Shown here: positions 20,253 through 47,244 of the stretch, piece after piece
How the letters are laid out: each line of letters begins with the position of its first letter
How positions within the stretch are numbered: the first letter of the stretch is position 1
Source: a virus
DNA: 64,000 nt
Virus record (IMG/VR): IMGVR_UViG_3300026382_000009
Location: 45,195-109,194 of that record
Strand: one strand, 5' to 3'
Notes under the pieces: model-generated
Database searches by the model: none
The model's input: the letters and a program-made list of their open reading frames with translations, nothing else
Told to the model about the DNA's origin: nothing
Made by a program: the position numbers and the translations under genes

Positions 20253-21542
20253 TTAATTTAAGTTTAATTGAGAGAGTTCTTCTAACCAAATTTCTTTTGG
20301 AGATTTTTTTGAGAGTAAATTTATTTTTTCTTGGAGAGATTTAATTTGTATTTTTAATTCATTTATTTTTTCTTCAGTTAAATTATAAAGATTCATTTTT
20401 AAATGTTCTTCAGGATATTGAATAGCAAGATTTTTACATTGTTCTAAAATATCATTTTTATTTCTTTTGTTAATTACTAGTTTATTTTCAATTATTGATT
20501 TAATAAATTTAGCTCTATCTAGTAAAAAGTTTATTTCTTTTTGATATTTTTCCAACAAATATTTTTTTCTTTTTTCATAGAATTTTAATCTTATTTCAAT
20601 ATATTTATCTATTAATTCATAAACGCTGTTAAATTCAATTATCCTATTATTTTCATCTATACATGTATAATTTTCAACAATTTTTTTAGATAATTTTAAC
20701 TTTTTAATAATTTCTTCATCATCTAAATTACTAAAATCAGAACTTACATTTATTTCAAATAAAAATTCACCATTTTGAGATTTGTCTTTAAATCCTTTGA
20801 TAATTTTTTTGTTTTCTAATTCATTTAAAATTTTCAAATAAGCTTTTAAGTCATAACCTATTGGTAATTCAGAAATGATTATTTTAGTTTTTCCAATTCG
20901 TTCGAATTTACCTAAAATTTCCCATCCATTTTCATATTCTTTAATTGTCCCTTTAAATCCCTTAAAATATGGCTTTAAATTAACTTTTTTACCTTTAATG
21001 TAATTTATTATATCTGTTAAATTTCTTGGAAGAATTTTTTGAGCAAAACCTGTTGAAACACCTTCACTTCCATTAACTAAAATCATAGGAATAATAGGAA
21101 CATAATATTTATATTCTATTCTTTGTCCTTCAAAATATTGTTCTTCTAAAATACTATCATCTTCTTGTCTATAAATATCTCTAAGATATGGTTGCATATA
21201 TGTATAAATATATCTGCTTGCTGCAGGTTCTGGAGATAATCTATCACCAAAATGTCCTTCCGGAACAAGATATGGAATATTATTTGTTCCAGCAAAATTT
21301 TGTGTCATATTAACAATAACACCTTCTATATTACCTTGACCATGTATATAATTAGTATGTTCAGCAACAGTTGCTGCAAGTCTTGCTACTTGTGTTTCTT
21401 TTTTAATATTTTTATCTAGAACAGTAAAAAGAACTTTTCTTGATGTATTTTTTAAACCATCAATATAACTAGCAATTTTTCTTGTGTTATCATAAACAGG
21501 ATAATTAATAAAATCATTGTTTATAAATTCTTGTAGCGTCAT
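20253..21542 (-). CDS. DNA topoisomerase II medium subunit, gp52-like
   Basis: A 429-residue GyrA/ParC-type breakage-reunion protein. It begins with the conserved FINYPVYDNTRKIASYIDGL and has VARLAATVAEHTNYIHGQGN, then FAGTNNIPYLVPEGHFGDRL and PAASRYIYTYM, where Tyr follows the conserved Arg and is the likely DNA-cleaving residue. A coiled coil (residues ~310-400) follows. T4 gp52 has 442 residues. It works with the two genes just upstream. Confidence 0.92.
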   Translation of the reverse strand: MTLQEFINNDFINYPVYDNTRKIASYIDGLKNTSRKVLFTVLDKNIKKETQVARLAATVAEHTNYIHGQGNIEGVIVNMTQNFAGTNNIPYLVPEGHFGDRLSPEPAASRYIYTYMQPYLRDIYRQEDDSILEEQYFEGQRIEYKYYVPIIPMILVNGSEGVSTGFAQKILPRNLTDIINYIKGKKVNLKPYFKGFKGTIKEYENGWEILGKFERIGKTKIIISELPIGYDLKAYLKILNELENKKIIKGFKDKSQNGEFLFEINVSSDFSNLDDEEIIKKLKLSKKIVENYTCIDENNRIIEFNSVYELIDKYIEIRLKFYEKRKKYLLEKYQKEINFLLDRAKFIKSIIENKLVINKRNKNDILEQCKNLAIQYPEEHLKMNLYNLTEEKINELKIQIKSLQEKINLLSKKSPKEIWLEELSQLNLN

Positions 21543-21551
21543 TTTAACTCC

Positions 21552-22670
21552 TCATATTTTATTTATATCTAAAGATGTTTCTTTTATATATTCTTTTCTT
21601 TTATCAACTTTTTCTTTTGATAACCAATCATCAAGTAATTTTTCATCTATTTCATCAAGTTTCACAATCATATTTTCAAGTCCATCTTTATTTATAATTT
21701 CCAATAATTGTTTCTTTGTCCATCTACCAAGACCTTTAGCATATTGAACCTCTCTGTTTGGTATATCTTTCATAGAATACCACCAATTTTTTAATTTTCC
21801 ATTTTTTATTTCAAATGCAATAGGAGTATAAAAACGATAAATTTTATTTCTATAATTAGGTAAGTATTTTACAATATTTCCTATTAAAAGTAAATTAATC
21901 TTAAATCCATCTAAATCTTGATCAGAAGCTATAATAATTTTTTCAAAATTATAACTATTACATATAGTAATAAGATCTTTTAATTCTTTATTAGAATTAA
22001 CTTTACTGATAGGCACTTCCCATGCATTTAATGGAACACCTTTTAGCTCGTAATAAGCATATTCATTTCTTCCTAATATATTCATTAAACCTGATCTTGC
22101 TGATGTTCCTTCACAAATTAACAAATATTTGTTATTTTTAATTGCTGGAAAAAATTTTTCAGATTTGATTTTCTTTTCTTTTTTAGATAATTTTTTTAAT
22201 TCAGCATTTTCTTTAGCTTTTTGTTTAAGTATAAAATATTCAGTTATAGCAGTCATCAAATTTTCATCTTTTAATAATTGCTTAACTATTTTATCCCAAT
22301 CTACATTTTCAAAAAATTTTTCTATATCTTTAATAGAATTTGATACTTCTATTTTTTCTTGAGAACTAAATTCAAGCTTTGGAAAAAATCTCATAATAAG
22401 AAGAATTTTCATTTTGTTTTTAATATCACTTGGTTTTATTGATGGAAATTTTTTAAGAAGTTTTTCTCTTATTTTTGGCACAATTTTATTATTAATAATA
22501 TACGAAATAGGTGTTCCACCATTTCTTATATAAAGTCCATTAACTATTAAACACTGAGAAAAATCATCATTTTCATTGTGTTTTATTTCAAAATAAAAAT
22601 TATCCTTTTTTATATTACCGTATTTCACAATAACTCCTTTTATGATTTCTAAATCACATAACAAATTCAT
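21552..22670 (-). CDS. DNA topoisomerase II large subunit, transducer and TOPRIM part
   Basis: A 372-residue protein holding the second half of a GyrB/gp39-type subunit. The transducer part includes VNGLYIRNGGTPISYIIN. The TOPRIM domain shows LLICEGTSARSGL (catalytic Glu) and IIASDQDLDGFKI (metal-binding Asp triad). The ATPase domain is in a separate frame upstream. The ATG at 22670 has no good binding site and is preceded directly by an in-frame TAA, so expression may depend on coupling. T4 splits its subunit too (39/60), but at a different point. Confidence 0.88.
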   Translation of the reverse strand: MNLLCDLEIIKGVIVKYGNIKKDNFYFEIKHNENDDFSQCLIVNGLYIRNGGTPISYIINNKIVPKIREKLLKKFPSIKPSDIKNKMKILLIMRFFPKLEFSSQEKIEVSNSIKDIEKFFENVDWDKIVKQLLKDENLMTAITEYFILKQKAKENAELKKLSKKEKKIKSEKFFPAIKNNKYLLICEGTSARSGLMNILGRNEYAYYELKGVPLNAWEVPISKVNSNKELKDLITICNSYNFEKIIIASDQDLDGFKINLLLIGNIVKYLPNYRNKIYRFYTPIAFEIKNGKLKNWWYSMKDIPNREVQYAKGLGRWTKKQLLEIINKDGLENMIVKLDEIDEKLLDDWLSKEKVDKRKEYIKETSLDINKI

Positions 22671-22719
22671 TTAATAATTGATAAGTGTCAATATTATTGT
22701 AATTAGACCAATAAATTAA
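22654..22719 (-). CDS. Possible -1 frame continuation of the topoisomerase ATPase gene
   Basis: Just after the ATPase frame stops, the -1 frame reads LIYWSNYNNIDTYQLLNEFV with protein-like composition and ends in TGA 22654-22656, overlapping the next gene start by 17 nt. The change of frame falls on a run of five T. One more T would make the frame continuous. It could be a sequencing error, a natural mutation or ribosomal slippage. Confidence 0.35.
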   Translation of the reverse strand, partial: LIYWSNYNNIDTYQLLNEFVM

Positions 22720-23438
22720 AAATTAATTTCTTGAATATTTATTCTTTCTTTATTGTAATAAAACTTAATTTCAGGATATGTTAAAGCCAACATAATGACT
22801 CTACTATAAATAGCTAATTTTTCATTTTCAGTAAATTTATTAACTTCAAATCTACTAAAATCAGGCTCTACATAAACTTCAACACCTGTTTTAGTAGTTT
22901 TCTTTTCTTTAACTTTTATTTTTGTTGCATTTTCTATACTCGTATAAACTATTTCTTTTCCAGAATTTCTATTTTTTCCAATAAAAACTTTACTAAAATA
23001 ATTTGTTAGTGCTGCTCCCATACCATTGGCACCAGCTGATTTTCTTTTTGAATCATCAAAATTACTCCCAGCTTTTAAAGTCCCCCAAGCTGATTCACAC
23101 ATCCAAACTTCTTTATTTAATATTTTATTAAAATGTTTTATGTTAGGTATTCCAACACCATTGTCTTTTACAGTAAATGATGTATCATCTAAAAAAATGT
23201 CTATTCTTGGATTACCATTAAAATTGTTATCTACAAAAGCATCAACTGAATTATCTAAAATTTCTTCAAAAATTTTTACAAGTCCTGGAACATATTCAAG
23301 TTCTGTTTCTACAAATTTATTATTTTTTACGACGTATCTTTTTTCACGTATTTTTTTAACAGCACCAATATAAACATTTGGTCTTTTTAATGCATGTTCT
23401 CTATCATCTAAAATTTCAATTTTCCTTTCTTTTGTCAA
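22716..23438 (-). CDS. DNA topoisomerase II large subunit, GHKL ATPase part
   Basis: A 240-residue GHKL ATPase domain of gp39/GyrB type. Motifs: EILDDREHALKRPNVYIGAV, EILDNSVDAF (Bergerat N box), VKDNGVGIPN and the Gly-rich lid SAGANGMGAALTNYFS. It ends near the start of the transducer domain; the rest is at 21552-22670. Together they have ~612 residues, close to an unsplit phage subunit. Confidence 0.9.
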   Translation of the reverse strand: MTKERKIEILDDREHALKRPNVYIGAVKKIREKRYVVKNNKFVETELEYVPGLVKIFEEILDNSVDAFVDNNFNGNPRIDIFLDDTSFTVKDNGVGIPNIKHFNKILNKEVWMCESAWGTLKAGSNFDDSKRKSAGANGMGAALTNYFSKVFIGKNRNSGKEIVYTSIENATKIKVKEKKTTKTGVEVYVEPDFSRFEVNKFTENEKLAIYSRVIMLALTYPEIKFYYNKERINIQEINF

Positions 23439-25601: not shown

Positions 25602-28340
25602 TTAACTTGAGCAACTTTCGCAGACATCATTATCTGTTTCAGCTTTTAAACTATTCATATAATATAATGTCTTAACTCCTAAACTTTCAGCAAATATAAT
25701 ATCTTCTATAATTTCAAAAGCACTTTCAGGATTTTTGTAATAAAGATTTACTGATTGTGATTGGTCTAAAAATTTTTGTCTAATTGCTGCAAGTTCTATA
25801 AGACGCTTTTGTGGAATATCCCAAGCCAATTCATAATACATTCTATTTTTATTTAGATTAGGTGCTAAAAATGGTAATGTATATGTTCCTTCTTTTATTA
25901 TTTTGTATTGTCTAATTGGTTCTATTCCTTCTGTGCTTGAAATGACTAATCCAGAAGTATTATGACTGATACATCCATTACTTAATACATATTCTTCATA
26001 TTCAGGAACATGTATATCCCAGGTTGGTTCAACACCTACTTTTTTAACTGATTTAACTCCTAATAATAAATTATTTTGTTGTTTAATATTATCCCCATCT
26101 TCTAAATCCTTTACTTGTTTCCAAATTAATTTGTCATCCTCTGTTTCAACAAGCAATAAATGGTTACCTGTAAATTTATATTTATTTCCATCTTCAAATT
26201 CTACTTCATAAACTTCTCTTTTTCCATTATAATATATTTTATTAGTTTCTTTATAACCAAATCTTGTTTTTACATTAATAGGGGATTTTAATTCATACCA
26301 ACCAAGAACTTCTAAGTTTTCTATTGTTTTGTAATCAATACCTCCTTCTTCAAGAATTTCTTGAATTGATTTGATACCATCTTTAGTTATTATCTCATTT
26401 TCTTTTGATTGGCATTGTGTAGGCGCTATTGCAAATAAATTTTCAAATCTTATTCCAAATTCTTTGAGTTCTTTTCTTAAACTTTCCCAATCTTTTTTCA
26501 TTTCAAAATTATATTTTTCTGGAAGTTTACTCAATTCCCAAGGAAATAAACCTTTATCCCAAGATGTTCCAGAAATTCCCTTATATTTTCCTCTTTCTTT
26601 AGCTAATCTTATTGCTTGCTTGATAAAATGATATGTCAAATCTTCAAATAATTCGTGTGTAAATCTTAAAACTTCATCATCAGTAAATTTTATACCTTTA
26701 CTCGCTAATAGATTTGCATAATTATTTACACCTATTCCTATACTTCTTAAATCTCTATTAAATTTTTCACCTAAACGAACTTTGTATTTTGCTACATCAA
26801 ATGCATTGTCCATACCTAATAAAATACTATAAGCTAATTCATCTTTTTCTTCTTCTGTCATTTCATACCATTTAACTAAATTAACAGAAGAAAGATTACA
26901 AATACCTATCAAACCATCATATTTTCTTACATTTATCCATTTATCATTATCTGAATCTTTAATTAACTTATCTTCTATAAGTCTAATAGGTTTTGTTCTA
27001 ACAGTCACCTCCATGCAGAGATTACTCATTTTTATAACATCAGGTGATACTCTCTGTTCATTTACATTATCCATACTCATCCAATAAATATTTCCTGTCT
27101 CACTTCTAACTTTAGCATAAAGAAATGCTAATTCTCTTGCTTTAATTTTTCTTTTTCTGATACCAGGTTTTTTAGAATAATAATCATACCACTTATCAAA
27201 TTCATCACCGTATGCTTCTACTAACTCAGGAGTATCTAAAGGATCAAATAAAAATACTTCTTCATCATTTATAATAGCTTCAGAAAATCTTCTATTCCAT
27301 TTCATTGTATATTTTAATTTTCTAGCTCTTTCTTCATCAGCACCACCAGCATCTCTTAACATAATTATTTCTGGTGACTCATAATGCCACCAAGCAAAAT
27401 TAACAACCGCTGCACCACTTCTAACACCTCTTTGATTAAATGATGAAATAACACTTTCAAATAATTTAATAAAATAAATAACTCCAGATGTTTTTCCGAC
27501 TAAATCTACAATTGCTCCTATAGCTCTTAACAATGTAACATCTATTCCTATTCCACTTCCATATTTAGAATAAATACCCATACTTCTTGCTACTTCTAAA
27601 ATACTTTCAGAATCATCATCTACTTCTATTAAAACACAACTTGTTGGATTAAAAACTCTTTCTAAAGCATTCACTATCATAGGTGTAGGAGCAGTAAATT
27701 TATGTAAAGATAAATCATCGTATTTTCTTTTAATTGTTTCTAATCTGTTTTTATCTTTATAATGTAATTGAATAGCAACAGCCATATATCTATGTTGAGG
27801 CAATTCTAAAAATTTTGTTTTACTGTATTTTTTAGCATATTTCTGCATAAACAATTCAAATCCACCAAACGTAAAAAGAAAATCTCTTTCTGGTTTAATA
27901 TAATCTCCAAGTTCTTTTAATTCTTCTTCTGTAAAAGTGTCAAAAATTTCTTTATTATAAACCTTGTATTGAATTCCTTTTTGAATAACATCTAAGTAAT
28001 TAGGATATTCATTTCTACTTACATTCCAAACTTCTTTTCTATATCTCAATATCAATAAATTTTTTGCTATATCATCCCAAACAGGATATAAATCAGAAAT
28101 AAAATTTGCACATGTTTCAATTACTTCATCTAATAATTTAATAACTGAAATTTTATTTCCTATTTTCAAATTAATTGCATTTAATACGTCTTTAACAAAA
28201 GTATCATCATATGGTTCTTGTATGCCTGCTTTATTTACAGCCCATTTAATGACTTTATAAAGTTTTTCTTCAGAATAAGGTTCTTCTCTTCCATCTCTTT
28301 TTATGACAATATGTTTTTTTCCTTCTTTTAATTCGATCAT
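25602..28340 (-). CDS. nrdA: Ribonucleoside-diphosphate reductase alpha subunit with mini-intein
   Basis: A 912-residue precursor. Residues ~8-95 are an ATP-cone (KHIVIKRDGREEPYSEEKLY). Catalytic features: PTSCVLIEV (redox Cys), SNLCMEVTV (Asn, Cys, Glu), GICNLSSVNL (redox Cys), TLYYMNS (radical-transfer Tyr pair) and the C-terminal CESC. Residues 643-794 interrupt the conserved IAPTQ/TSGLVISSTEGIEP site with an intein; the spliced enzyme would have 760 residues. It pairs with the nrdB product. Confidence 0.93.
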   Translation of the reverse strand: MIELKEGKKHIVIKRDGREEPYSEEKLYKVIKWAVNKAGIQEPYDDTFVKDVLNAINLKIGNKISVIKLLDEVIETCANFISDLYPVWDDIAKNLLILRYRKEVWNVSRNEYPNYLDVIQKGIQYKVYNKEIFDTFTEEELKELGDYIKPERDFLFTFGGFELFMQKYAKKYSKTKFLELPQHRYMAVAIQLHYKDKNRLETIKRKYDDLSLHKFTAPTPMIVNALERVFNPTSCVLIEVDDDSESILEVARSMGIYSKYGSGIGIDVTLLRAIGAIVDLVGKTSGVIYFIKLFESVISSFNQRGVRSGAAVVNFAWWHYESPEIIMLRDAGGADEERARKLKYTMKWNRRFSEAIINDEEVFLFDPLDTPELVEAYGDEFDKWYDYYSKKPGIRKRKIKARELAFLYAKVRSETGNIYWMSMDNVNEQRVSPDVIKMSNLCMEVTVRTKPIRLIEDKLIKDSDNDKWINVRKYDGLIGICNLSSVNLVKWYEMTEEEKDELAYSILLGMDNAFDVAKYKVRLGEKFNRDLRSIGIGVNNYANLLASKGIKFTDDEVLRFTHELFEDLTYHFIKQAIRLAKERGKYKGISGTSWDKGLFPWELSKLPEKYNFEMKKDWESLRKELKEFGIRFENLFAIAPTQCQSKENEIITKDGIKSIQEILEEGGIDYKTIENLEVLGWYELKSPINVKTRFGYKETNKIYYNGKREVYEVEFEDGNKYKFTGNHLLLVETEDDKLIWKQVKDLEDGDNIKQQNNLLLGVKSVKKVGVEPTWDIHVPEYEEYVLSNGCISHNTSGLVISSTEGIEPIRQYKIIKEGTYTLPFLAPNLNKNRMYYELAWDIPQKRLIELAAIRQKFLDQSQSVNLYYKNPESAFEIIEDIIFAESLGVKTLYYMNSLKAETDNDVCESCSS
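25959..26414 (-). mobile_element. Mini-intein within NrdA
   Basis: 152 residues, from Cys1 (CQSKENEIITKDGIKSI) to the end motif NGCISHN, followed by Thr+1 of the C-extein. Block B is GNKYKFTGNHLLL (Thr and His), block F is WDIHVPEYEEYVLSN. No homing endonuclease domain is present, and none fits in this length. The N-terminal Cys, penultimate His and final Asn needed for splicing are all there. Confidence 0.9.
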
Positions 28341-44775: not shown

Positions 44776-45138
44776 TCAAATTCCCATTTCTAATTTTTGC
44801 CATTCTATAAATAATTTGATATCCCATCTAAAACTTTCAATATTTTTTAAATGTTTTTCTAAATATTCAATGTCATTTTCAAGTTCTTTTAATTTATATT
44901 TTAACTCAATATATTCTTTATCTCTTTCAATAAAATCTTTTATTTCATTTTGTTTCAAAGAAATAGGAAAATCATTTTTATAGTAAAGATATCTTTCCAA
45001 CCATAAAGAATCAAGCTCTTTTGAAACTTTTATTAATTCATAACGCTTTTGTTTAATTTCTTTTAAAACTTTTTCATATTCACCAGCAATCTCTCTAAGT
45101 TTTTCTTTTATATTTGTATTATCAAATGTAAAATCCAT
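44776..45138 (-). CDS. Coiled-coil early protein, unknown
   Basis: A 120-residue helical protein (REIAGEYEKVLKEIKQKRYE; LKYKLKELENDIEYLEKHLK) immediately downstream of the UvsW C-part gene. Two long heptad regions indicate a dimer or oligomer. No family recognised. Confidence 0.55.
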   Translation of the reverse strand: MDFTFDNTNIKEKLREIAGEYEKVLKEIKQKRYELIKVSKELDSLWLERYLYYKNDFPISLKQNEIKDFIERDKEYIELKYKLKELENDIEYLEKHLKNIESFRWDIKLFIEWQKLEMGI

Positions 45139-45139
45139 T

Positions 45140-46732
45140 TTAATCTCCTATTTGAATTTCTTTTTCTATAATAGGATAAGAATTTTGTAAATACAAATTA
45201 ATTCTTTCATCTGCATGTTTTAGTATATAATTTTTCTTTTTTCTACAACTTGTAAAATCATCTACATAATCAAAAATTTTAACTTTTTCTTTTGACTCAT
45301 GTTGACGCATTCCTCTTCCAATACTTTGATTAAGAATTATAAAAGATTTAATACTAGAAACCAAATGTATATTATGAATTTTCTTTATATTAACTCCCGT
45401 TGATAATGTTCCAAATGTTGCAATTAATATACCACCATCTTTTAATTCAAACATTTTTCTTATTTCTTCTCTTTTTTCTCCTTTTACATCACCTCTAATA
45501 AAGAAAATGTTCAAATCATCTAAAACAATAATTTTATCATGTTTTACATCATTTTTTATAAGATTTCTTGATTGAATAATATAATATTTTGAATTGTCTT
45601 TTATAGATTTGATTTCTTTTTTATAAATTAAATCTTCATTAGGAACATCTAAATTTAATTTTAATTTAATAATTTCTTTTAACAAAGTTTCACCATGAGT
45701 AATTTTATTATAAAGAATTAAATTATTTTCTTTTTTGTTTAAAGAAAGTTTATTTACTATTTTAGCTATAAAAATGTTTCTTACATTCAAATCTTCTATA
45801 AATTTAACTTCTTGTTGATACGTTTTACATTTTTGCCAAAATTCTTTACAAATCTCCTTATTGTAATTTAAAAAGAACATGACAACTTCAACAGGTGTAG
45901 CATATCCTTGATTAATAAGTTCTTGAGGAGTAATAATTGTGATAGGTTTACCCAATGTTGAAAGAAGTGTAAATTTATCTACACTGTTCTGAGGGAGTGT
46001 TCCTGTTAAACCTATTTTATATTCAGCATTTACAGAAGCTTTAAGTATTTTATTAAGAGAATCAGATTTTGCAACATGAGATTCATCAATTATGACAAAA
46101 TTAGCTTTAGGTAATAAATGCATAGCATTTTTCAAACTTTGCCAAGTTGATATAACAACATCCTTTTTAAACTCTTTTTCTTTTCCTGAATAAATTTTAT
46201 GAATGTATTTATCTAAATCTTTCCAACCATATTCTTTAAAATCACTATACATTTGTTCTACAAGATTTATTGTTGGAACAACTAAAACACCTTTTAATCC
46301 TTTGGATAAAAGATATCTAATAATTACATACAAAACAAAACTTTTACCTGAATTATGATGAACTATGTTATTTTGAACATAACACTCTTCTTCAAAATCA
46401 ATATTGAAATCAATCCATTCTTGCTTTTTTAAATCTTCAATTGAAACAATTTTTTTTGTGTCAAACAAATTACCTTTTAGTATTTCATCTCCTATTTTTA
46501 AATTTGAAGAAGACTCCCAAATTGGTTTATTTTTATCTTTTTTTAATAAAAAATGTGTAATAGAACATTTTATTGATGAACCATCATCAAATGTAATTTT
46601 TTTACCATCTAAATCTTTTTTAATAAAATAATCATTTATTTTTTTAAATCCAAATGGTGTTTCAATTTTTACATTTTTTCCTTGTTTTATTAATTCAACA
46701 ATTTCACCAAAAGTTCTTTCTTCTATTTTCAT
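45140..46732 (-). CDS. UvsW-type helicase, C-terminal part, with C-intein at its N-terminus
   Basis: A 530-residue precursor. Residues 1-127 are a C-intein (ends NNIVHHN); residue 128 is Ser+1 of the C-extein. The extein starts SGKSFVLYVIIRYLL, the second half of Walker A, then has VVISTWQSL, VIIDESH (DExH), IGLTGTLPQ and SIGRGMRQHE (motif VI). Joined with the gene at 46756-47244, the spliced protein has 551 residues, close to T4 UvsW (587). Its own TAGGAG start site lies in the 23-nt gap. UvsW unwinds branched DNA and R-loops. Confidence 0.9.
   Translation of the reverse strand: MKIEERTFGEIVELIKQGKNVKIETPFGFKKINDYFIKKDLDGKKITFDDGSSIKCSITHFLLKKDKNKPIWESSSNLKIGDEILKGNLFDTKKIVSIEDLKKQEWIDFNIDFEEECYVQNNIVHHNSGKSFVLYVIIRYLLSKGLKGVLVVPTINLVEQMYSDFKEYGWKDLDKYIHKIYSGKEKEFKKDVVISTWQSLKNAMHLLPKANFVIIDESHVAKSDSLNKILKASVNAEYKIGLTGTLPQNSVDKFTLLSTLGKPITIITPQELINQGYATPVEVVMFFLNYNKEICKEFWQKCKTYQQEVKFIEDLNVRNIFIAKIVNKLSLNKKENNLILYNKITHGETLLKEIIKLKLNLDVPNEDLIYKKEIKSIKDNSKYYIIQSRNLIKNDVKHDKIIVLDDLNIFFIRGDVKGEKREEIRKMFELKDGGILIATFGTLSTGVNIKKIHNIHLVSSIKSFIILNQSIGRGMRQHESKEKVKIFDYVDDFTSCRKKKNYILKHADERINLYLQNSYPIIEKEIQIGD
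46352..46732 (-). mobile_element. C-half of an atypically split intein
   Basis: 127 residues, from MKIEERTFGEIVEL to NNIVHHN. It holds the block-B-like region GSSIKCSITHFLL (Thr, His), block F (EWIDFNIDFEEECYVQ) and the final His-Asn. There is no endonuclease domain. The break point falls after the first ~14 residues of the intein, so nearly all of the intein fold is here. Confidence 0.88.
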
Positions 46733-46755
46733 ATTAACTCCTATAAATTTTTATG

Positions 46756-47244
46756 TTAATCTTCAATTATAACTCTTATTTTTTCATTTTTATCTAGACA
46801 ACCTGTTGCAGAAATAAGAATACAATTTTTATTATTTATAGCTTCAACAATAGCTTTTATTTGATAATCTCTTGGTTTAAATGGTGGATTTAATGAGTTA
46901 ATGAATTCTTTAATTTCTTCTTCAGTTACTTTTTCATTATTTGAATCTATATTTTCGTATTCAAATTCTGGAAATTTATTTAAAATTAATTTTACTAATC
47001 CTCTTGGTATTATCATTCCAGATGGTGTTAAAGAATAAAATTTCTTCTTTCCATCCCATAAACCTGCTCTAAAAGCAGGTGTAAATCTATATCCATCAAC
47101 ATAAATTGAAAGCATATTCATGAGTTTTAACCGTAATTCCATTCCTTCTTCAGTATTAGGAATTTCTATTAAAGAATATGAATAATTTATATCTTTTATT
47201 TTCACATTAATCCTTTGATTTAGAATTTTAACCTTTATATCCAA
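46756..47244 (-). CDS. UvsW-type helicase, N-terminal part, with N-intein at its C-terminus
   Basis: A 162-residue precursor. The extein (residues 1-148) matches the UvsW N-domain (YRFTPAFRAGLWDGKKKFYS, then FKPRDYQIKAIVEAINNKN) and ends ILISATG, the first half of the Walker A motif. Residues 149-162 (CLDKNEKIRVIIED) are the N-intein. The partner is the next gene downstream, 23 nt away. Without trans-splicing, the ATP-binding loop would be cut in two. Confidence 0.9.
   Translation of the reverse strand: MDIKVKILNQRINVKIKDINYSYSLIEIPNTEEGMELRLKLMNMLSIYVDGYRFTPAFRAGLWDGKKKFYSLTPSGMIIPRGLVKLILNKFPEFEYENIDSNNEKVTEEEIKEFINSLNPPFKPRDYQIKAIVEAINNKNCILISATGCLDKNEKIRVIIED
46759..46800 (-). mobile_element. 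N-half (14 residues) of an atypically split intein
   Basis: CLDKNEKIRVIIED, starting with the nucleophile Cys1 directly after ISATG. This is one of the shortest natural N-inteins one could expect; known atypical ones (AceL-TerL, VidaL) have about 25 and 16 residues. The stop codon follows at 46756. Confidence 0.85.

What the first reader, a model, noticed from the sequence alone, without database searches (positions are those of the whole stretch)
46352..47244. Split intein cutting the UvsW helicase inside Walker A, with a 14-residue N-half
One gene ends ISATG + CLDKNEKIRVIIED; the next, 23 nt downstream, starts with a 127-residue C-intein ending NNIVHHN and then SGKSFVLY. Joining the exteins restores ATGSGKS, so the helicase can only bind ATP after trans-splicing. 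The split falls very early in the intein, as in the atypical AceL-TerL and VidaL inteins. The gap holds only a stop, a ribosome site and a start.
Basis: partly seen in the sequence, partly recalled or inferred. Interest (0 to 1): 0.92.

Follow-up and report, generated by a model that had tools for sequence, protein, structure and literature searches.

The report
Split intein in phage UvsW helicase
A T4-like phage encodes its UvsW DNA helicase as two genes, each carrying one piece of a self-excising protein element (a split intein) that should join the halves inside the ATP-binding loop; the small piece, 14 residues, would be one residue shorter than the shortest characterised natural one.

Summary
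Two adjacent minus-strand genes encode UvsW: an N-half ending ATG|CLDKNEKIRVIIED-stop, a 23-nt gap with its own ribosome site, and a C-half beginning with a 127-residue C-intein ending HHN|SGKS. Removing the intein restores an uninterrupted P-loop that aligns without a gap to an intein-free relative. The C-intein model (pLDDT 87) matches the VidaL crystal structure (TM 0.83, 1.8 A). All class 1 residues are present, and the intein is under purifying selection. The same split, at the same codon, occurs in a second phage at 86-88% identity. There the two contig ends carry the two ends of a convergent endonuclease gene between the halves, so the window is the endonuclease-free form. Atypically split inteins with an endonuclease between the halves occupy the same P-loop position in phage UvsX and PhoH genes, including cultured phage PA5oct (UvsX). 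The intein is therefore a new member of a known kind (atypical split inteins: VidaL, PolB16, AceL-TerL). Its 14-residue N-piece is one shorter than the 15 called shortest characterised. The spliced protein is most likely 538 residues, not 551. Splicing itself has not been shown here.

The parts
46801..47205 (-). UvsW N-extein: 135 codons from GTG 47205 to ...ILISATG (UvsW N-terminal domain up to the first part of the Walker A loop); alternative start TTG 47244
   Evidence: Pfam UvsW_N 4.5e-8 and PHROG DNA helicase 5.5e-17; start codon by alignment to L007
46759..46800 (-). IntN: 14-residue N-intein CLDKNEKIRVIIED with Cys1 (intein block A)
   Evidence: identical but for one residue (I/V) in L006
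46756..46758 (-). stop codon TAA of the N gene
   Evidence: the same TAA in L006
46733..46755 (-). 23-nt intergenic gap CATAAAAATTTATAGGAGTTAAT; position of the homing endonuclease gene in the relative L006/L001
46738..46742 (-). ribosome-binding site AGGAG, 5 nt before the ATG of the C gene; the stretch TAGGAGTTAATATG is identical in L001
46352..46732 (-). IntC: 127-residue C-intein MKIEERTF...YVQNNIVHHN; block B C-S-I-T-H60, penultimate His126, terminal Asn127
   Evidence: AlphaFold model pLDDT 87.4 matching VidaL, gp41-1 and other inteins in the PDB
45140..46351 (-). UvsW C-extein, 403 codons plus stop, beginning SGKSFVLY (Ser+1, rest of Walker A, then RecA-like helicase domains)
   Evidence: PDB 2oca uvsW 1.9e-42; Pfam ResIII, DEAD, Helicase_C
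46340..46351 (-). SGKS, C-terminal part of Walker A; Lys aligns with residue 141 of T4 UvsW
44776..45138 (-). uvsY directly downstream, as expected for the T4-like uvsW-uvsY order (context, not part of the intein)
   Evidence: Pfam UvsY 2.5e-10

Best explanation
This is a naturally split, class 1 mini-intein with an atypical (S1-type) split site, lodged in the P-loop of the UvsW helicase of a T4-like phage. Gene 1 makes UvsW-N (135 aa) fused to a 14-residue IntN; gene 2 makes a 127-residue IntC fused to UvsW-C (403 aa). IntN docks into the nearly complete HINT fold of IntC. Cys1 takes the acyl shift at the N junction, Ser+1 attacks to give the branched ester, Asn127 (with His126) cyclises, and an ester-to-amide shift leaves a 538-aa UvsW with a seamless ATGSGKS Walker A loop. 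The element belongs to the 'fractured gene' system: in a close relative a homing endonuclease gene lies between the halves, and the window carries the compact endonuclease-free form. Shown: gene structure, homology, fold of IntC, conservation and selection, a relative with the same split, intein-free alleles. Inferred: association, splicing chemistry, and dependence of helicase activity on splicing.
For: Anatomy and catalytic residues. UvsW on both halves. C-intein sequence matches to CatC, gp41-1, VidaL. AlphaFold model of IntC pLDDT 87.4 with 62 PDB matches at E<=0.001, those listed nearly all inteins, VidaL TMq 0.83. Same split at the same codon in L006 (N half, 88% aa) and L001 (C half, 86% aa). 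dN/dS about 0.14 for IntC (0.066/0.47) and about 0.06-0.11 for exteins, so the intein is kept under selection. Spliced protein aligns gap-free across the joint to intein-free L007. The L006 and L001 contig ends both lie inside an endonuclease ORF and overlap by 12 nt in frame. Atypically split inteins at the identical P-loop register in UvsX (L018, L019, L021, PA5oct) and PhoH (L010/L017), each with an endonuclease gene between the halves.
Against: No splicing experiment exists. The 14-residue IntN is one residue below the shortest characterised natural example (15; PMC10189870, PMC13014065). IntC sequence identity to VidaL is only about 25%, and block F carries ECYV where most relatives have NHRYW. 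The Pfam intein model scores IntC below its cut-off. The joining of L006 and L001 rests on a 12-nt AT-rich overlap and the same metagenome label.
Confidence: 0.93

Rival explanations
1. Sequencing or assembly error in an ordinary one-piece intein: the stop and frame change are artefacts.
For: Contiguous mini-inteins of similar size exist, even in the same phage (NrdA).
Against: L006 has the same stop at the same codon, L001 has the same ATG and ribosome site, and an endonuclease gene separates the halves there. Simple indels do not create a stop, a Shine-Dalgarno sequence and a start in two independent contigs.
Confidence: 0.02
2. Dead intein: splicing has been lost, and UvsW works as two separate subunits or not at all.
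For: Phage genes-in-pieces enzymes without splicing are known; PMC3322345 cites the T4-like ribonucleotide reductase (Friedrich et al. 2007). IntN is very short.
Against: All class 1 residues are intact, IntC dN/dS is about 0.14, and IntN changed by one conservative residue. The break lies inside the P-loop, which two separate chains could hardly form, and both extein halves remain under purifying selection.
Confidence: 0.04
3. The two reading frames are joined by programmed frameshifting or read-through into one chain that then cis-splices.
For: The genes are only 23 nt apart.
Against: Stop plus gap is 26 nt, so a stop must be read and the frame changed. The gap holds a good AGGAG site and an ATG. 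In the relative the gap holds an endonuclease gene on the opposite strand, so no continuous frame is possible.
Confidence: 0.02
4. The split intein is a regulatory device: slow or conditional trans-splicing times UvsW activity, which in T4 shuts off origin-dependent replication late. (This is an addition to the best explanation rather than an alternative to it.)
For: The split persists without an endonuclease in the window (one search finds no related endonuclease in the record) and sits in the ATP-binding loop of a protein whose timing matters.
Against: No test of rate or conditionality. Retention after endonuclease loss is equally explained by the difficulty of precise removal.
Confidence: 0.08

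Closest known systems
VidaL split intein (PDB 6vgv/6vgw)
   Same: Cys-dependent class 1, split after beta-2 with a very short IntN (16 aa) and a long IntC; best fold match by TM-score (0.83, 1.8 A); crystallised C-extein begins SGK, the same P-loop register
   Different: About 25% identity in IntC; different block F and probably a different gene: its closest match here is the PA5oct UvsX intein. From memory, not checkable here: Neugebauer 2017 described VidaL inteins in a T4-like helicase and in UvsX.
PolB16 OarG split intein (PMC10189870)
   Same: Naturally split at the S1 position; IntN of 15 aa, called the shortest characterised
   Different: Ser1/Ser+1 chemistry, IntC 168 aa, DNA polymerase host; the window has Cys1/Ser+1 and a 14-aa IntN
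AceL-TerL / GOS-TerL and consensus Cat (PDB 6dsl)
   Same: Atypically split phage intein with short IntN; CatC matches IntC at 7.8e-6, 34% identity in the fold search
   Different: Split after the first helix (S2), IntN 25-37 aa; terminase gene
Fractured genes with split inteins and a homing endonuclease family (Dassa et al. 2009, cited in PMC11766414)
   Same: The relative L006/L001 has an endonuclease gene between split-intein halves
   Different: The window lacks the endonuclease; in L006/L001 it lies on the opposite strand; the split is atypical. The original paper is not in the library, so this comparison rests on its title and general knowledge
PA5oct UvsX split intein (L012, NC_071039)
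   Same: IntN CLPETAKVKIRLSKKQS (17 aa), endonuclease gene, IntC ending SHN|SGKS: same register and same +1 residue
   Different: UvsX host gene, 26% intein identity, endonuclease present
One-piece intein in Bacillus phage Bp8p-C UvsW-like helicase (L005)
   Same: Intein in the P-loop of the homologous helicase
   Different: Contiguous, with an in-frame extra domain, inserted after GGK (GGK|T), three residues further on: a different insertion site

Membership tests
Class 1 intein | Nucleophile Cys/Ser at position 1 | tested here: met
   Cys1 of CLDKNEKIRVIIED
Class 1 intein | Block B TxxH (or SxxH) motif | tested here: met
   S57-I-T-H60 in IntC, conserved in the alignments
Class 1 intein | Penultimate His, terminal Asn, Cys/Ser/Thr at +1 | tested here: met
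   H126-N127 | S
Class 1 intein | HINT fold | tested here: met
   IntC model pLDDT 87.4; listed PDB matches nearly all inteins, plus HINT relatives
Class 1 intein | Autocatalytic splicing | not testable with these tools
   needs expression of the precursors
Naturally split intein | Halves encoded as separate genes with own stop, ribosome site and start | tested here: met
   same in L006/L001
Naturally split intein | Extein halves are one protein in relatives without the intein | tested here: met
   L007, L008, L009 and others uninterrupted; gap-free joint
Atypically split intein with short IntN (S1 type) | IntN of about 15-37 aa, break after beta-2, long IntC | tested here: met
   14 + 127 aa; PMC13014065 gives 15-37 aa for natural cases, so this is one below the range; IntC begins with the helix
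VidaL intein family (as a clade) | Groups with VidaL in a tree of inteins | tested here: inconclusive
   VidaL pairs with PA5oct UvsX (0.998); UvsW inteins branch elsewhere, deep nodes mostly weak
Fractured gene with endonuclease between intein halves | Free-standing endonuclease gene between the halves | tested here: not met
   Window gap is 23 nt; the close relative L006/L001 meets it by contig-end overlap
UvsW helicase | UvsW N domain, RecA-like helicase domains, Walker A | tested here: met
   Pfam UvsW_N, PDB 2oca 1.9e-42, PHROG DNA helicases, uvsY neighbour

The most novel reading that the evidence does not exclude
A natural 14-residue IntN, shorter than any characterised, drives efficient trans-splicing, and after loss of its endonuclease the split intein is kept because trans-splicing gates when UvsW gains ATPase activity during infection.
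Probability: 0.08. Interest if true: 0.8.

Novelty: new member of a known kind. Interest (0 to 1): 0.5.

Why it matters
It adds a UvsW allele to the small set of naturally split inteins with very short N pieces, with a predicted IntN one residue below the published record, easily made by peptide synthesis and so of direct use as a protein-ligation tool. The window and its close relative form a pair, with and without the endonuclease, that lets one ask how split inteins persist after losing their mobility gene. Atypically split inteins at the identical P-loop register in UvsW, UvsX and PhoH suggest that one position shared by different phage ATPases is a recurrent target.

Tried and rejected
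A scan with the two-sequence C-intein alignment chose poor patterns and found nothing. A junction pattern (ATGCLDKNEK) found only the known relative. A genome-contig scan found nothing. The endonuclease fragment folded alone gave pLDDT 42 and is not used; PDB sequence search gave nothing for it. A tree of 13 inteins did not resolve where the UvsW intein belongs, so descent from the UvsX/PhoH inteins is not claimed. Lower synonymous divergence in the intein than in the exteins (0.33 vs 0.51, Fisher p 0.004) hints at more recent exchange of the intein, but it is one pair of phages and is left as a hint. Dassa 2009, Neugebauer 2017 and Burton 2020 are not held.

Full report
What is there. On the minus strand of the window two adjacent genes encode the halves of a UvsW helicase. 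The first (GTG 47205 to TAA 46756) carries 135 residues of UvsW ending ILISATG and then CLDKNEKIRVIIED. After 23 nt containing AGGAG comes the second gene (ATG 46732 to 45140): 127 residues ending NNIVHHN, then SGKSFVLY and the rest of the helicase. The start TTG 47244 is less likely than GTG 47205, because the uninterrupted relative L007 starts at the corresponding codon; the spliced protein is then 538 rather than 551 residues.

The exteins. The N half matches UvsW_N (4.5e-8) and the C half matches T4 UvsW, PDB 2oca (1.9e-42). In that alignment the intein falls one residue before the GK pair of Walker A; the Walker A lysine position is residue 141 of T4 UvsW. Removing the intein gives ATGSGKS, and the spliced protein aligns to L007 UvsW with 366 of 535 identities and no gap at the joint, L007 reading ATSSGKS. 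The other relatives found in IMG/VR are also uninterrupted here. The uvsY gene follows, as in T4.

The intein. IntC matches CatC, gp41-1 and VidaL by sequence. AlphaFold, given seven sequences of the window and fetched loci, models it at pLDDT 87.4. Foldseek returns inteins and HINT relatives for all the PDB matches listed, VidaL having the best query TM-score (0.83 at 1.8 A). Cys1, the block B SxxH, the penultimate His, the terminal Asn and Ser+1 are present. With 14 + 127 residues it is a mini-intein without an endonuclease domain, split in the S1 region like VidaL and PolB16.

Independent evidence for the split. A scan for the N half found L006 (88%) with CLDKNEKIRVIVED and the same stop; a scan for the C half found L001 (86%) with the same ATG and ribosome site. 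Both loci come from metagenome 3300026512 and both end, at the contig edge, inside an ORF on the opposite strand. The ends overlap by 12 nt (TTATTATTTATT), and the overlap keeps one frame, giving an endonuclease-like protein of about 407 residues between the halves. The L006 part matches a PHROG of homing endonucleases at 4.7e-4, and the L001 part is related to the endonuclease-like gene between the halves of the PhoH gene of LR756500 (51% over 68 residues). The window shares both edges of this insertion but lacks the gene, and no relative of it was found in the window's 109-kb record. Whether the window lost it or the relative gained it is not resolved.

Selection. Between the two phages dN/dS is 0.066/0.47 for IntC, 0.079/0.92 for the N-extein and 0.099/0.87 and 0.047/0.81 for two parts of the C-extein. 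The intein is kept. Its synonymous divergence is lower than that of the exteins (p 0.004), which hints at a more recent common origin of the intein DNA than of the host gene.

A wider pattern. Searching with the C-intein found further atypically split inteins in T4-like and jumbo phages: UvsX in L018, L019, L021/L022 and cultured Pseudomonas phage PA5oct, and PhoH in LR756500/L017. Each has an endonuclease-like gene between the halves, and each sits exactly one residue before the GK (AK in L021) of the P-loop: GDSG|TGKT, GETG|TGKT, GESG|TAKT, GESG|SGKS, GKAG|TGKT, as ATG|SGKS here. VidaL's crystallised chain ends SHA-SGK, in the same register. The classic P-loop insertion lies between K and T (PMC5050341), so this is a distinct recurrent position. 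A tree of the inteins does not show whether this reflects one lineage spreading between ATPases or repeated arrival.

What is known. Atypically split inteins are a recognised kind: natural IntN pieces of 15-37 residues (PMC13014065), 15 in PolB16, called the shortest characterised (PMC10189870), 16 in VidaL, 25 in AceL-TerL. Fractured genes with split inteins and endonucleases were described in 2009 (cited in PMC11766414; original not held). No held paper joins UvsW with a split intein. From memory, and not checkable here, a VidaL intein in a T4-like helicase was reported in 2017; if so the host gene may not be new. The finding is therefore a new member of a known kind, with a predicted IntN one residue below the record and an informative endonuclease-free form.

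What is not shown. Splicing, its rate, and the dependence of ATPase activity on it are inferences from anatomy and homology. Searches may leave out records very near the window's own genome, as the tools state.

Noticed in passing
window 25602-28340 (-), intein about 25959-26400: Ribonucleotide reductase large chain with a contiguous mini-intein (CQSKENEII...ISHN|T), the only other intein detected in the 109-kb record.
   Followed up: partly
L012 1197-4203 (Pseudomonas phage PA5oct NC_071039): UvsX is a fractured gene: N half with 17-residue IntN, a 477-aa endonuclease-like gene, C half with IntC; the record annotates them as hypothetical proteins and UvsX-like recombinase.
   Followed up: partly
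L010/L017 (LR756500, 462-kb phage): PhoH gene split by an atypical intein (IntN 26 aa) with a 430-aa endonuclease-like gene between the halves.
   Followed up: partly
L018, L019, L021, L022: UvsX genes split by atypical inteins with overlapping endonuclease-like genes; L021/L022 reads HN|TAKT, an altered GK in Walker A.
   Followed up: partly
L014 2344-4922 (Yersinia phage TG1): UvsX with a canonically split intein and a GIY-YIG endonuclease gene between the halves, annotated as DNA repair protein and recombinase.
   Followed up: no
L020 2-1503: TerL C-half with an AceL-like C-intein (SHN|CEFLGS) preceded by the end of a nuclease-like ORF.
   Followed up: no
window 20253-23438 (-): Type II topoisomerase apparently encoded in three genes (240, 372 and 429 aa), reminiscent of T4 genes 39, 60 and 52; judged by eye from the translations.
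   Followed up: no
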